Assembly: GCA_035631035.1 (NCBI GenBank)
Contig: DASQJL010000002.1
Location: forward strand, 1-51,302
DNA: 51,302 nucleotides
Direction of reading: 5' to 3'
Origin: Candidatus Binatia bacterium
Lineage (GTDB): Bacteria > Eisenbacteria > RBG-16-71-46 > SZUA-252
The notes under the pieces were generated by a model. It was not told the origin of the DNA and searched no databases. It saw only the letters and a list, made by a program, of their open reading frames with translations. This document shows positions 45,839-49,494 of the stretch, one piece after another (the first letter of the stretch is position 1; each line of letters starts with the position of its first letter). A program made the position numbers and the translations under genes.

Positions 45839-46699
45839 TTACTGGATCTCCAACAGCCTCGCCACGAGATCCGGGCTCAACATGCCCGTCGCCACCTCCT
45901 CGACCGGGCCCGTCATCACCAGGTCGAGATCGTCCGCGACTTCGATCGTGAGCTCGCCGCCCTCCATCAAGACGGTCACGCGGCCGCCGACGAGCCCTCG
46001 ATCCCGGCAAGCGGCGGCCACCGCGCAGGCGCTCGTGCCCGACGCCAGGGTATGTCCCGCGCCCCGTTCCCAGATCAACGCACGCACGTGATCGCGCGAC
46101 ACCGGCTCGGCGAGCTGCACGTTGATCCGATCGGGAAAGCGCGTGTGATTCTCGATCAGCGGTCCCGCTTCGAAGAGGCGCTCGCGCGTCAGCGGCTCGC
46201 CGAAGACCACGCAGTGCGGGTTTCCCACCGATACCACCGTGACGTCCAGCCCCCGTCCGGCGACTTCCAGCCGCTTCACGCCGCGATCCACCCGCGCGCG
46301 TCCCATCTCCAGCCGCACCGCGCGGACGCGGGTCCCCTCTCGAAACACCTCGGTGCGCACCGGACCCGCCACCGTCTCGACCGAGAAAACGCTCTCGGCG
46401 GTGTAGCCGTGCTCGGCGAGGAACTTGGCCACGATGCGCAGGCCGTTGCCGCTCCGCTCGGCCTGGGATCCGTCAGGATTCCAGATCCGCACGAAGAATC
46501 GATCGTCGCTCGCGCTCACTTCGAGAACGCCGTCCGAACCCACGCCGAGATGGCGATGGCAGAAGAGGCGGACGCGCTCCGGGGTCAAGGAAATCGGAAA
46601 GCGCGCGGCGTCGACGACGATGTAGTCGTTGCCCAGGCCGTGCGATTTCACGAAATCGGCCCCGATGAGGCCCTTCTCGGACGCGGCGACCCGCGTCAC
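45839..46699 (-). CDS. Diaminopimelate epimerase homologue with both catalytic Cys replaced by Ser
   Basis: This 286-residue product starts at a GTG overlapping the previous gene (GTGA). The fold markers of DapF are present: FVKSHGLGNDYIVVD, GSDGVLEV, NPDGSQAERSGNGLRI (about 74-89), VSVGNPHCVVF, HTRFPDRINVQ and ERGAGHTLASGTSACAVA (about 211-228). In classical DapF (E. coli) the two active-site cysteines sit in CGNGAR and ACGSGACA; here those positions are Ser83 and Ser220, read directly from AGC and TCG codons. It is therefore not a standard DapF. It may act on another substrate or be a serine variant. It ends an operon with an esterase and a carboxymuconolactone-decarboxylase-like protein. 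Confidence 0.85.
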   Translation of the reverse strand: MTRVAASEKGLIGADFVKSHGLGNDYIVVDAARFPISLTPERVRLFCHRHLGVGSDGVLEVSASDDRFFVRIWNPDGSQAERSGNGLRIVAKFLAEHGYTAESVFSVETVAGPVRTEVFREGTRVRAVRLEMGRARVDRGVKRLEVAGRGLDVTVVSVGNPHCVVFGEPLTRERLFEAGPLIENHTRFPDRINVQLAEPVSRDHVRALIWERGAGHTLASGTSACAVAAACRDRGLVGGRVTVLMEGGELTIEVADDLDLVMTGPVEEVATGMLSPDLVARLLEIQ

Positions 46700-47286
46700 G
46701 CCAGCCCCGCCACCGCCAGCCCCTCGCGCACCGCCGTAGCACCGCTCCAGGGCTCCGACAGCATGATGGCCTCCTTCACGTCCGCGCGCGCGGCGCCCAC
46801 GTTGACCGCGCCGATGGCGTGCGACCTCAGCTGGCGCCACATCCTTGTCGCCGTCAGGATCGCGACCACGCACAGCTCGCGCTCCACGGCGCCCAGGCCC
46901 GGCCTCGACAGCGTCTTGCCGTAGCCCTCCAGGATCATCCAGTCGGCCAGGTCCGGCGACAGTCCGCGCATCGTCTCCACCAGTTTGTCGTAGTTCCGGC
47001 CGTAGACGCGCCGGCAGAGGGAGTCGCCGTCGCGCCGCCATCGGTCGGGATCGGTGGGGGCCGCCCGATCGGGGACCCCACCCACCAATATCGGCGCGAC
47101 CGCGAACAGCGCCTCGATCGCGCGCGGGAATCCCACGAACAGATAGCTCTGGAGCACGCTTTCGTAGAGGGCCGACGCGTCCACGCCGGCTTCGATCGAG
47201 GCGCGGGCCTGGGCCGCGACGTCGGCGGGGGCGCCCGCCGCGACGGCCGCCGAGACCCGCACCAGCGCAGCCTGCTCGGACGTCAC
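46696..47286 (-). CDS. Carboxymuconolactone decarboxylase-family protein
   Basis: This 196-residue all-helical protein starts at GTG, 16 bp after the esterase. It shows the family layout: an N-terminal helix pair (ALYESVLQSYLFVGFPRAIEAL in two blocks), then RELCVVAILTATRMWRQLRSHAIGAVNVGA, the AhpD/CMD-like block with a central His. The CxxC of AhpD is absent, so a peroxidase role is unlikely; a decarboxylase or unknown enzyme is more probable. Its stop overlaps the DapF-like gene by 4 bp, so the two are likely cotranslated. No aromatic pathway genes are nearby. Confidence 0.75.
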   Translation of the reverse strand: MTSEQAALVRVSAAVAAGAPADVAAQARASIEAGVDASALYESVLQSYLFVGFPRAIEALFAVAPILVGGVPDRAAPTDPDRWRRDGDSLCRRVYGRNYDKLVETMRGLSPDLADWMILEGYGKTLSRPGLGAVERELCVVAILTATRMWRQLRSHAIGAVNVGAARADVKEAIMLSEPWSGATAVREGLAVAGLA

Positions 47287-47302
47287 GCCGGGCCGAACGC
47301 CT

Positions 47303-48307
47303 CTACGGGGAGAGTGCCGCCGTGAGCTTGGGCAGGCTCACGTCGTAGCGGTAGGGGATATTCATGTGCCCGTCCTCGAACTCCTGGTATTCGTGCTTCA
47401 GGCCGAGCGCCGTGAGCTTCTTCGCCATCTGACGCGCGCCCAGCTCGAGATAGAACTCGTCCTCCGTGCCGCAGTCCAAGAAGACGAGCTTCATCTCGCG
47501 AAGCGCGTGCACGTGATGGTCCACCATCGTCAGGGGATCGCGCTCGATCCAGCGCGCCCAGACGTGAGGCTGCAGCTCGCCCGTCTCCCAATCGAACGGA
47601 AGGTCGCAGAACGCCGGCGGGTTCTCCGGATTGGGCGAGTAGGCGGCCGCCATCGCGATCGTGTCGAGCGCCGGGAAGTCGGCTTCGCGCTTCTTCGGCT
47701 GGGCCGCGAACTGCTTCATCCAGCCGGCCACGCCGCCGAACTTGCGGATGCGCCTCGCCGCCGGGCCGAAATCGCGCGGGTAGCACCAGTCGAAGCCCAT
47801 GTCCCCGCTGTGGCAGGCGATGGCGCTGAAGACGTCGGGCTGGCGCATGCCCAAGGACATCGACCCGTAGCCGCCGCTCGACTTCCCCATCACCCCCCGG
47901 TGCCCGAACCCCAGCGTCCGGTACTTCGCGTCCACGTGTGGGACCAGCTCCTCGACGATGTGGTCTTCGTAGGGCCCGAGGCCCTCGGAGTTCACGTACT
48001 GGCTTCCGCCCAGGTGGGTGAAGCAGTCGGGAAGGGCGAGGATCGCGGGCTTGCAGCGGCCCGTGGCGATCAACCCGTCCATCCGCTCGTTCAACGCGGG
48101 AACCCAGGCGCCGTCGTTCAGGAACGACCGGCCGCGCCCCGTGAATCCCGCCAGGCACCAGATCACCGGATAGCGCTCCGAGCTCTTCTCGTAGCCTGGG
48201 GGCGTATAGATCCAGAGATCGCGGACGTGCGGGTCGCCCGGGAGATTGTCCTCGAGCAGCTTGCTCGTCACCGTCTCGACTTGAACCGTGCCTCGGTCGG
48301 GCCGCAT
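47303..48307 (-). CDS. Esterase D-like alpha/beta hydrolase
   Basis: This 334-residue alpha/beta-hydrolase is of the esterase-D/ferric-enterobactin-esterase type. Nucleophile elbow GKSSGGYGS (Ser about 144), preceded by GHRGVMGK, an acid in LVFLDCGTEDEFY, and the catalytic His in FEDGHMNIPYRY near the C-terminus. WIYTPPGYEKSSERYPVIWCLAGF is the typical strand-to-oxyanion segment. No signal peptide. The ATG at 48307 lies only 11 bp from the start of the divergent glycosyltransferase, so the true start may be internal (for example a GTG at codon 13). First gene of the esterase-CMD-DapF-like operon. Confidence 0.85.
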   Translation of the reverse strand: MRPDRGTVQVETVTSKLLEDNLPGDPHVRDLWIYTPPGYEKSSERYPVIWCLAGFTGRGRSFLNDGAWVPALNERMDGLIATGRCKPAILALPDCFTHLGGSQYVNSEGLGPYEDHIVEELVPHVDAKYRTLGFGHRGVMGKSSGGYGSMSLGMRQPDVFSAIACHSGDMGFDWCYPRDFGPAARRIRKFGGVAGWMKQFAAQPKKREADFPALDTIAMAAAYSPNPENPPAFCDLPFDWETGELQPHVWARWIERDPLTMVDHHVHALREMKLVFLDCGTEDEFYLELGARQMAKKLTALGLKHEYQEFEDGHMNIPYRYDVSLPKLTAALSP

Positions 48308-48318
48308 TCTCGGACCAT

Positions 48319-49494
48319 ATGTCCCTGCCCGGATGGTGTCAATCGGCCCTCCTCGTCGCGACCGCGGTCACCGCCGCGGGGTGGCTCGGAGGCGGCTTCA
48401 TCTATTACATGGGCACTCGGCGCGTCCGGGGGCTGACGTCCGTCACGCCGCTCTCCGATACCGAGCTTCCTTCCCTCTCCATCGTCGTCGCCGCCCGGAA
48501 CGAAGCGGCGCGCATCGAAGCCGCGGCACGAAGCCTCCTGGCCCAGGACTATCCCGGGCTGGAGGTCATCGCCGTGGACGACCGCTCTGAGGACGCGACC
48601 GGCTCGATCCTGGACCGCCTGGCCTCCGAAGACCCACGCCTGAGGGTGGTTCACGTGGAGGAGCTTCCAACCGGATGGCTCGGCAAGTGCCACGCGCTGG
48701 CCGTGGGAGAGCAGGCTGCCGCCGGGCAGTGGATCCTCTTCACCGACGGCGACGTGACGATCGCTCCTGACGCCGTGCGCCGCGCCGTGTCGCTCGCCAT
48801 CCACGAGGGGGCCGATCACGTGGCGGTGGCCGCCGATCTGGAGGTCGGCGGCCTGGGCGAGGCGACCTTCCTCGCCTACTTCGTCTACGCCTTCAACCTG
48901 AGTCAGCGCCCCTGGGACGCGAAGAACCCGCGCTCCGGAGCGCACATTGGAATCGGCGCCTTCAACCTGGTCCGGCGCGAGGCCTACGAACGGGCGGGAG
49001 GGCACCGGCGGCTCCGGATGGAGCTCCTCGATGACATGGGACTGGGACTGATCGTGAAGCGGAGCGGCGGGGTCTCGATGTTCGCGGGACACGACGGGCT
49101 GGTGCGCGCCCGCTGGCAGGAGGGCTTGGGCGGCCTGATCGTGGGGGTGGAGAAGAACGCCTTCGCCGCGCTTCGCTACGACGTGCCGGCCACCGTCGGG
49201 GCCGTGGCGCTCCAGCTCGCGCTCTCCTGGCTTCCCGTTGCGGGACTGCTGGCGGCCGACCCGCGCATGCAGGGCGCGGCGATCCTGGCCTGGTCCGGCG
49301 TCTTCCTCGTCTACGCGACCACGGCGCACGTCGTGGAGACGCGCACGTGGCACGCGCTCACCATGCCGATCGGAGCCACCCTCTTCGGCTATTCCATCCT
49401 GGCGTCCATGGTGCAGGCGCTTCGCCGGGGCGGGATCGTCTGGCGTGGGACCTTCTACTCGCTGAAGGAGCTACGGGCGGGCCGTGTGAGGTAG
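48319..49494 (+). CDS. Family 2 membrane glycosyltransferase
   Basis: This 391-residue protein has an N-terminal membrane helix (ALLVATAVTAAGWLGGGFIYY) and a GT-A domain: LSIVVAARNEAARIEAAARSLLAQDYPGLEVIAVDDRSEDATG in blocks, FTDGDV (DxD-like metal site), LLDDMGLGLIVKRSGG and RARWQEG (the QxxRW-like acceptor motif in degenerate form). Three C-terminal hydrophobic segments (about 285-305, 315-335, 345-365) complete the membrane part. The family includes carotenoid and sterol glycosyltransferases such as CrtQ, but the substrate is not determined. It is monocistronic as far as visible and ends before a minus-strand terminator. Confidence 0.85.
   Translation: MSLPGWCQSALLVATAVTAAGWLGGGFIYYMGTRRVRGLTSVTPLSDTELPSLSIVVAARNEAARIEAAARSLLAQDYPGLEVIAVDDRSEDATGSILDRLASEDPRLRVVHVEELPTGWLGKCHALAVGEQAAAGQWILFTDGDVTIAPDAVRRAVSLAIHEGADHVAVAADLEVGGLGEATFLAYFVYAFNLSQRPWDAKNPRSGAHIGIGAFNLVRREAYERAGGHRRLRMELLDDMGLGLIVKRSGGVSMFAGHDGLVRARWQEGLGGLIVGVEKNAFAALRYDVPATVGAVALQLALSWLPVAGLLAADPRMQGAAILAWSGVFLVYATTAHVVETRTWHALTMPIGATLFGYSILASMVQALRRGGIVWRGTFYSLKELRAGRVR

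What the first reader, a model, noticed from the sequence alone, without database searches (positions are those of the whole stretch)
45839..46699. DapF homologue in which both catalytic cysteines are serine
The two active-site positions (ERSGNG, ASGTSACA) are Ser83 and Ser220, in otherwise conserved blocks. Classical DapF needs both Cys; Cys-to-Ser substitution is known to cripple epimerisation. The gene is in an operon with an esterase and a CMD-family protein, not with lysine genes. It may be a different isomerase or a member of a Ser/Ser DapF-like subfamily.
Basis: partly seen in the sequence, partly recalled or inferred. Interest (0 to 1): 0.6.

Follow-up and report, generated by a model that had tools for sequence, protein, structure and literature searches.

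The report
Cysteine-free diaminopimelate epimerase (Ser/Ser DapF)
This gene makes a version of the cell-wall and lysine enzyme DapF in which both supposedly essential cysteines are serines, and it belongs to a widespread group that is the only DapF in many bacteria with meso-diaminopimelate cell walls, so the textbook two-cysteine mechanism is probably not the only one nature uses.

Summary
The gene is on the minus strand (window 45839-46699). It scores 227.9 bits against the DapF model (cut-off 114.65), and Ser83/Ser220 replace the two catalytic Cys. It is not a curiosity: all seven genomes of its Eisenbacteria family that carry it are Ser/Ser, none has another DapF, and a Ser/Ser branch spans many phyla. 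Among 160 homologues readable at both sites, pairs were Cys/Cys 100, Ser/Ser 58, Ser/Cys 2, Cys/Ser 0: the two sites switch together. DAP-contact residues known from solved structures are kept.

Context places the branch in the DAP pathway: a LysA-DapF(Ser/Ser) single frame; dapB-dapF-dapL, dapF-dapA-dapB and ddl-dapF neighbourhoods; no DAP dehydrogenase; MurE with the meso-DAP motif. In the actinobacterial order Solirubrobacterales, 31 of 31 sampled genomes have one DapF, always Ser/Ser, and no DAP dehydrogenase, while published chemotaxonomy gives the order meso-DAP walls.

Best reading: a real DAP epimerase with a serine/serine acid-base pair, not a different isomerase. Nothing was assayed, so activity and mechanism are inferred. 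I found no paper describing it. New variant of a known kind.

The parts
45839..46699 (-). dapF homologue, Ser/Ser type (286 aa, GTG start, stop included in coordinates)
   Evidence: PF01678 187.5 bits; TIGR00652 227.9 bits; AlphaFold2 model pLDDT 95.7, best PDB match 9mro, E 1e-32
46451..46453 (-). codon AGC for Ser83, at the place of the first catalytic Cys (Anabaena Cys75)
46040..46042 (-). codon TCG for Ser220, at the place of the second catalytic Cys (Anabaena Cys224)
46696..47286 (-). CMD-family protein (196 aa) upstream, stop overlapping the dapF start (GTGA)
   Evidence: PF02627 52.6 bits; overlap read; found directly upstream of dapF in all seven family genomes
47303..48307 (-). putative esterase (334 aa), first gene of the run esterase-CMD-dapF
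   Evidence: PF00756 66.1 bits; found in five of seven family genomes

Best explanation
The protein is the organism's diaminopimelate epimerase. [quoted passage not shown] Each serine sits at the N-terminus of a helix facing the cleft between the two domains, where the helix dipole and backbone amides that stabilise the thiolates in classical DapF would also favour an ionised hydroxyl. It belongs to a widespread Ser/Ser branch of the DapF family; in this Eisenbacteria family it stands in place of the Cys/Cys DapF of the rest of the phylum, probably through horizontal gene replacement. Shown here: sequence, predicted fold, conserved DAP-binding residues, joint switching of the two sites, single copy, pathway context. 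Inferred: DAP epimerase activity and the serine acid/base mechanism.
For: Only DapF homologue in the 97%-complete genome and in all seven family genomes that carry it. DAP contacts of Anabaena DapF (Asn13, Asn66, Asn164, Asn197, Glu215, Arg216; PMC12039745) are Asn24, Asn74, Asn160, Asn193, Glu211, Arg212 here, and are kept in 58/58 Ser/Ser sequences (Asn66 in 57/58). Pairs are Cys/Cys 100, Ser/Ser 58, Ser/Cys 2, Cys/Ser 0. LysA and Ser/Ser DapF in one 795-codon frame; dapB-dapF-dapL, dapF-dapA-dapB, ddl-dapF. DAP dehydrogenase over cut-off in 0 of 33 genomes, MurE in 33 of 33, LysA matched in 31 of 33; the 12 MurE read have DNPR. In the order of G074, 31/31 genomes have one DapF, all Ser/Ser, with no DAP dehydrogenase, and the order is reported to have meso-DAP walls (PMC3035278). 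Both serines directly precede helices in the model. A Ser/Cys enzyme of the related proline racemase superfamily is an active epimerase (PMC4113996).
Against: No assay. Cys-to-Ser mutants of related enzymes keep under 0.1% activity (PddB, PMC8225329), and serine is a far weaker acid than cysteine. The window's gene is not beside lysine genes. Gammaproteobacteria carry Ser/Ser beside a Cys/Cys copy, so not every member need have this role. A non-homologous epimerase cannot be excluded. DapL-like and LysA proteins of the window's genome score below strict equivalog cut-offs. The LysA-DapF frame could reflect a missed stop codon in one assembly.
Confidence: 0.74

Rival explanations
1. It is a different isomerase or racemase: the DapF fold with a Ser/Ser pair acting on another amino acid, linked to the esterase and CMD genes.
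For: DapF-fold enzymes with other substrates exist (histidine, O-ureidoserine and 2,4-diaminobutyrate racemases). The local neighbours are not lysine genes. In Gammaproteobacteria a Ser/Ser copy sits beside a canonical one, twice between leuD and leuB.
Against: All residues that hold both ends of DAP are kept; sole DapF homologue in genomes that have MurE with the meso-DAP motif and lack DAP dehydrogenase; LysA frame-sharing and dap operons in relatives.
Confidence: 0.11
2. It is a weak or inactive DapF relic, and meso-DAP is made by an unknown non-homologous epimerase or taken up.
For: Cys-to-Ser mutants of related enzymes are nearly dead (PMC8225329). Two family genomes have no DapF match at all (81% and 96% complete).
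Against: The family keeps 70-76% identity with the motifs and ligand residues invariant; the branch spans many phyla and is the single copy in 31 of 31 genomes of one order; it is kept inside dap operons. A relic would not be kept like this.
Confidence: 0.08
3. It epimerises DAP, but the acid/base groups are not the two serines: another residue, water or a substrate group does the proton transfer.
For: The large pKa gap for serine. Ser/Ser members carry co-varying changes nearby, e.g. Lys/Arg before the first Ser, Gln at Anabaena 199, Ser at 227, and Cys at 167 more often than in Cys/Cys members (48/58 against 16/100).
Against: No other Cys column is both fixed and specific to the branch; the Solirubrobacterales type has Leu before the first Ser and Gly at 227; the two Ser are invariant in 58/58.
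Confidence: 0.07
4. Sequencing, binning or assembly artefact, or a canonical dapF missed in the unassembled part of the genome.
For: The genome is in 135 contigs and 97% complete.
Against: Same residues in independent assemblies of the family and across phyla; none of seven family genomes has a second DapF.
Confidence: 0.01

Closest known systems
Diaminopimelate epimerase DapF, Cys/Cys type (TIGR00652; Anabaena 9mro, H. influenzae 1gqz, A. thaliana 3ejx)
   Same: Fold (Foldseek E 1e-32 to 9mro, TM 0.87), length, DAP-contact residues, single genomic copy, pathway context of relatives
   Different: Both catalytic Cys are Ser; accompanying changes at Anabaena positions 74, 81, 199 and 227
Ser/Cys 4-hydroxyproline 2-epimerases and Ser/Thr trans-3-hydroxyproline dehydratases of the proline racemase superfamily (PMC4113996)
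   Same: Natural replacement of a catalytic Cys by Ser in the same overall fold, with activity kept
   Different: Other family and substrates; the epimerase there keeps one Cys; none described there is a Ser/Ser epimerase in the passages read
C73S and C217S mutants of H. influenzae DapF (PDB 2q9h, 2q9j)
   Same: Ser at one or other catalytic position
   Different: Laboratory single mutants of a Cys/Cys enzyme; natural Ser/Ser proteins carry both changes plus further adjustments
DapF-fold amino acid racemases with other substrates (HisR PMC11602996, PddB PMC8225329, O-ureidoserine racemase 7vdy)
   Same: DapF fold, cofactor-independent
   Different: They use Cys pairs (HisR and PddB by the papers); the Ser/Ser branch keeps the full DAP-contact set and dap context

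Membership tests
DapF (TIGR00652 / PF01678) | Sequence profile above the curated cut-off | tested here: met
   TIGR00652 227.9 bits vs 114.65; PF01678 187.5 vs 34.7
DapF (TIGR00652 / PF01678) | Two-domain DapF fold | tested here: met
   AlphaFold2 pLDDT 95.7, pTM 0.92; 26 best PDB matches are DapF or O-ureidoserine racemase, top 9mro E 1e-32
DapF (TIGR00652 / PF01678) | Two catalytic cysteines at the helix N-termini | tested here: not met
   Ser83 and Ser220. So it is filed as a Ser/Ser variant branch of the family, not as classical DapF
DapF (TIGR00652 / PF01678) | Residues that bind both ends of DAP (Anabaena Asn13, Asn66, Asn164, Asn197, Glu215, Arg216) | tested here: met
   Asn24, Asn74, Asn160, Asn193, Glu211, Arg212; kept through the branch
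DapF (TIGR00652 / PF01678) | Place in the DAP/lysine/peptidoglycan pathway | tested here: met
   By genome content and by relatives' gene context, not by the window's own neighbours
DapF (TIGR00652 / PF01678) | Interconverts LL-DAP and meso-DAP | not testable with these tools
   needs an enzyme assay
Proline racemase / hydroxyproline epimerase superfamily | Match to that family's profile | tested here: not met
   Pfam reports only PF01678; structural matches are much weaker (E about 1e-17 or worse)
PhzF family | Match to that family's profile | tested here: not met
   Pfam reports only PF01678; PhzF structures match at E about 1e-17, 15% identity

The most novel reading that the evidence does not exclude
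A thiol-free class of DAP epimerase, spread over many bacterial phyla and the only DapF in at least one whole order with meso-DAP walls, performs efficient cofactor-independent alpha-carbon epimerisation with two serine hydroxyls, so the thiol/thiolate pair is not required for this chemistry.
Probability: 0.6. Interest if true: 0.8.

Novelty: new variant of a known kind. Interest (0 to 1): 0.68.

Why it matters
DapF is a model for how a weak thiolate base can remove a very weakly acidic alpha-proton, and Cys-to-Ser mutation is a standard way to slow such enzymes for crystallography (PMC12039745, PMC11602996). A natural Ser/Ser branch serving as the only DAP epimerase would put that explanation directly to the test. 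It would be predicted to escape thiol-directed inhibitors such as aziDAP and disulfide-type redox control as reported for C. glutamicum DapF (PMC5296763). It also means that automatic annotation calls DapF many proteins lacking the residues held to be essential.

Tried and rejected
Idea that another Cys takes over: no Cys column is both fixed in and specific to the Ser/Ser set. Idea that a Lys/Arg before the first Ser is required: it is Leu in the Solirubrobacterales type. Several independent origins of Ser/Ser: the quick tree needs three changes, but one clade is not rejected (p-AU 0.59), so the number of origins is open. Literature searches for a described Ser/Ser DapF found nothing; the library lacks most subscription papers, so this is weak evidence of novelty. 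Neighbour scans in L059, L060, L071 and L050 gave no informative family. An earlier count said the esterase is in all seven family genomes; on re-reading it is five of seven.

Full report
What is there. The finding's coordinates hold a minus-strand gene of 286 codons. It scores well above the curated cut-off of the DapF equivalog model (227.9 against 114.65 bits), and Pfam finds only DAP_epimerase. Against the solved Anabaena enzyme the alignment runs from residue 14 to 274, and both catalytic cysteines are serines: Ser83 (AGC) and Ser220 (TCG). The start codon overlaps the stop of a CMD-family gene, itself preceded by an esterase. The CMD gene is directly upstream of dapF in all seven family genomes and the esterase is found in five of them.

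Where it comes from. Record titles of the nearest relatives (70-76% identity) say Candidatus Eisenbacteria. A search of 40 genomes of the phylum found a match of this type in the window's genome and five others of its family, one match each; two family genomes had none (81% and 96% complete). A seventh family member, L033 (G077), came from the other collection and also has a single copy. Other families of the phylum have DapF with Cys, at only 28-36% identity to the query. In a tree built without the columns of the active-site motifs, this family lies inside a 46-member Ser/Ser clade (SH-aLRT 99), far from the phylum's Cys/Cys sequences. That suggests replacement by horizontal transfer (inference).

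How widespread. One scan of the genome collection and sampled searches around Chloroflexota, a Thermoleophilia-type actinobacterial class and Gemmatimonadota gave 165 distinct homologues, 160 readable at both sites: Cys/Cys 100, Ser/Ser 58, Ser/Cys 2, Cys/Ser 0. These counts are not a census, since the first scan used a Ser/Ser query, but the two sites plainly change together. Ser/Ser members carry record titles from Armatimonadota, Chloroflexota, Myxococcota, Rokubacteria, Latescibacterota, Poribacteria, Spirochaetota, Gemmatimonadota, Acidobacteriota (Geothrix), Gammaproteobacteria and Actinomycetota. The quick tree needs three label changes for Ser/Ser, but a single clade is not rejected (p-AU 0.59), so the number of origins is open.

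Is it the working DapF? Of the 37 genomes reached through Ser-type loci, 27 have no other match to the DapF model (one of these, G071, is readable at the first site only). The exceptions are five Gammaproteobacteria, one Spirochaetes and one deltaproteobacterial genome that also have a Cys/Cys copy, two Geothrix with a second divergent copy, and one fragmented case. In 33 genomes whose only DapF is of the Ser type, MurE is over cut-off in all; the 12 MurE sequences I could read carry DNPR, the motif of meso-DAP-adding enzymes (the meaning of DNPR is general knowledge). LysA matches in 31 of 33, 22 over cut-off. DAP dehydrogenase, the known bypass of DapF, passes its cut-off in none. In the window's genome the best aminotransferase candidate scores 489 bits to LL-DAP aminotransferase and LysA 254.5 bits, both below strict cut-offs but with these families as best match.

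Direct links to the pathway. In an Anaerolineales assembly LysA and Ser/Ser DapF form one open frame of 795 codons with near full-length matches to both models; a missed stop codon in the assembly cannot be excluded. In a 0.9-Mb alphaproteobacterial MAG the order is dapB-dapF(Ser/Ser)-dapL, with aspartokinase beside it; in a MAG titled Akkermansia it is dapF(Ser/Ser)-dapA-dapB; in two MAGs ddl directly precedes dapF. In a Thermoleophilaceae MAG a DapL-like gene follows dapF at once.

The strongest single argument. In the order that holds a MAG titled Solirubrobacterales (L080, G074) and the Thermoleophilaceae MAG (L064, G064), 31 of 31 genomes have exactly one DapF, and all 31 are Ser/Ser (28; L183; L236; G224). 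None has DAP dehydrogenase. [quoted passage not shown] The genomes searched are unnamed and the link between this order and the named one rests on the MAG titles, so a check on named isolates is still needed.

How it would work. Contacts to DAP in Anabaena DapF (PMC12039745) are Asn13, Asn66, Asn164, Asn197, Glu215 and Arg216. The window protein has Asn24, Asn74, Asn160, Asn193, Glu211 and Arg212, and the branch keeps them almost without exception. The model (pLDDT 95.7) places both serines (residues 73 and 210 of the modelled chain) directly before helices 74-86 and 211-223, as the catalytic cysteines are placed in solved enzymes (PMC12039745). Positions that differ between the two kinds include Cys81 to Ile, Gly227 to Ser, Glu/Asp/Asn199 to Gln and Met/Phe74 to Lys/Arg, which suggests a site re-tuned around the serines; the Solirubrobacterales type shares only part of them. 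A serine as acid/base in this fold has precedent: a Ser/Cys hydroxyproline epimerase is active (PMC4113996). Against it, Cys-to-Ser mutants of PddB keep under 0.1% activity (PMC8225329). Natural Ser/Ser proteins have had the chance to adapt; single mutants have not.

Verdict. The protein is best described as a Ser/Ser variant branch of the DapF family that probably does the classical reaction without thiols. It fails one textbook defining feature (the two Cys), so it should not be filed as classical DapF, and its activity is untested.

Noticed in passing
L067:5992-6819(+), L068:5992-6822(+): In Cellvibrio-like Gammaproteobacteria the Ser/Ser DapF sits between leuD and leuB in leuC-leuD-X-leuB-asd, while a canonical Cys/Cys dapF lies elsewhere in the genome; the role of this second copy is unknown.
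   Followed up: partly
L164:1474-2343(-), L165:1477-2346(+): Two actinobacterial DapF sequences of the Thermoleophilia-type class have a Ser/Cys pair and are sister to a Cys/Cys one: a possible half-way state, with the same arrangement (N-terminal Ser, C-terminal Cys) as the active Ser/Cys hydroxyproline epimerase.
   Followed up: partly
L182, L186, L187, L188: A separate group of Ser/Ser DapF in the same class with short proteins (229-261 aa), still over the DapF cut-off where tested (L182, L187), and single copy in their genomes.
   Followed up: no
L243 and L244 (G065:C138, G069:C2): Two Geothrix genomes have, beside the Ser/Ser DapF, a second very divergent DapF-like ORF with a CCGTG motif at the second site and no recognisable first motif.
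   Followed up: no
window 46696-48307: Esterase and CMD-family genes run into dapF in one transcription direction, with a GTGA stop/start overlap between CMD and dapF; CMD is upstream of dapF in all seven family genomes. Why these are coupled to dapF is unexplained.
   Followed up: partly
Searches (G037, G039; 38 of 61 Chloroflexota genomes): Two genomes of the window's own family and most sampled Chloroflexota show no DapF match at all; how, or whether, they make meso-DAP was not examined.
   Followed up: no
window 48319-49494 (+): Glycosyltransferase family 2 protein whose best NCBIfam match is hopene-associated HpnB (179.9 bits, below its cut-off of 379.25).
   Followed up: no
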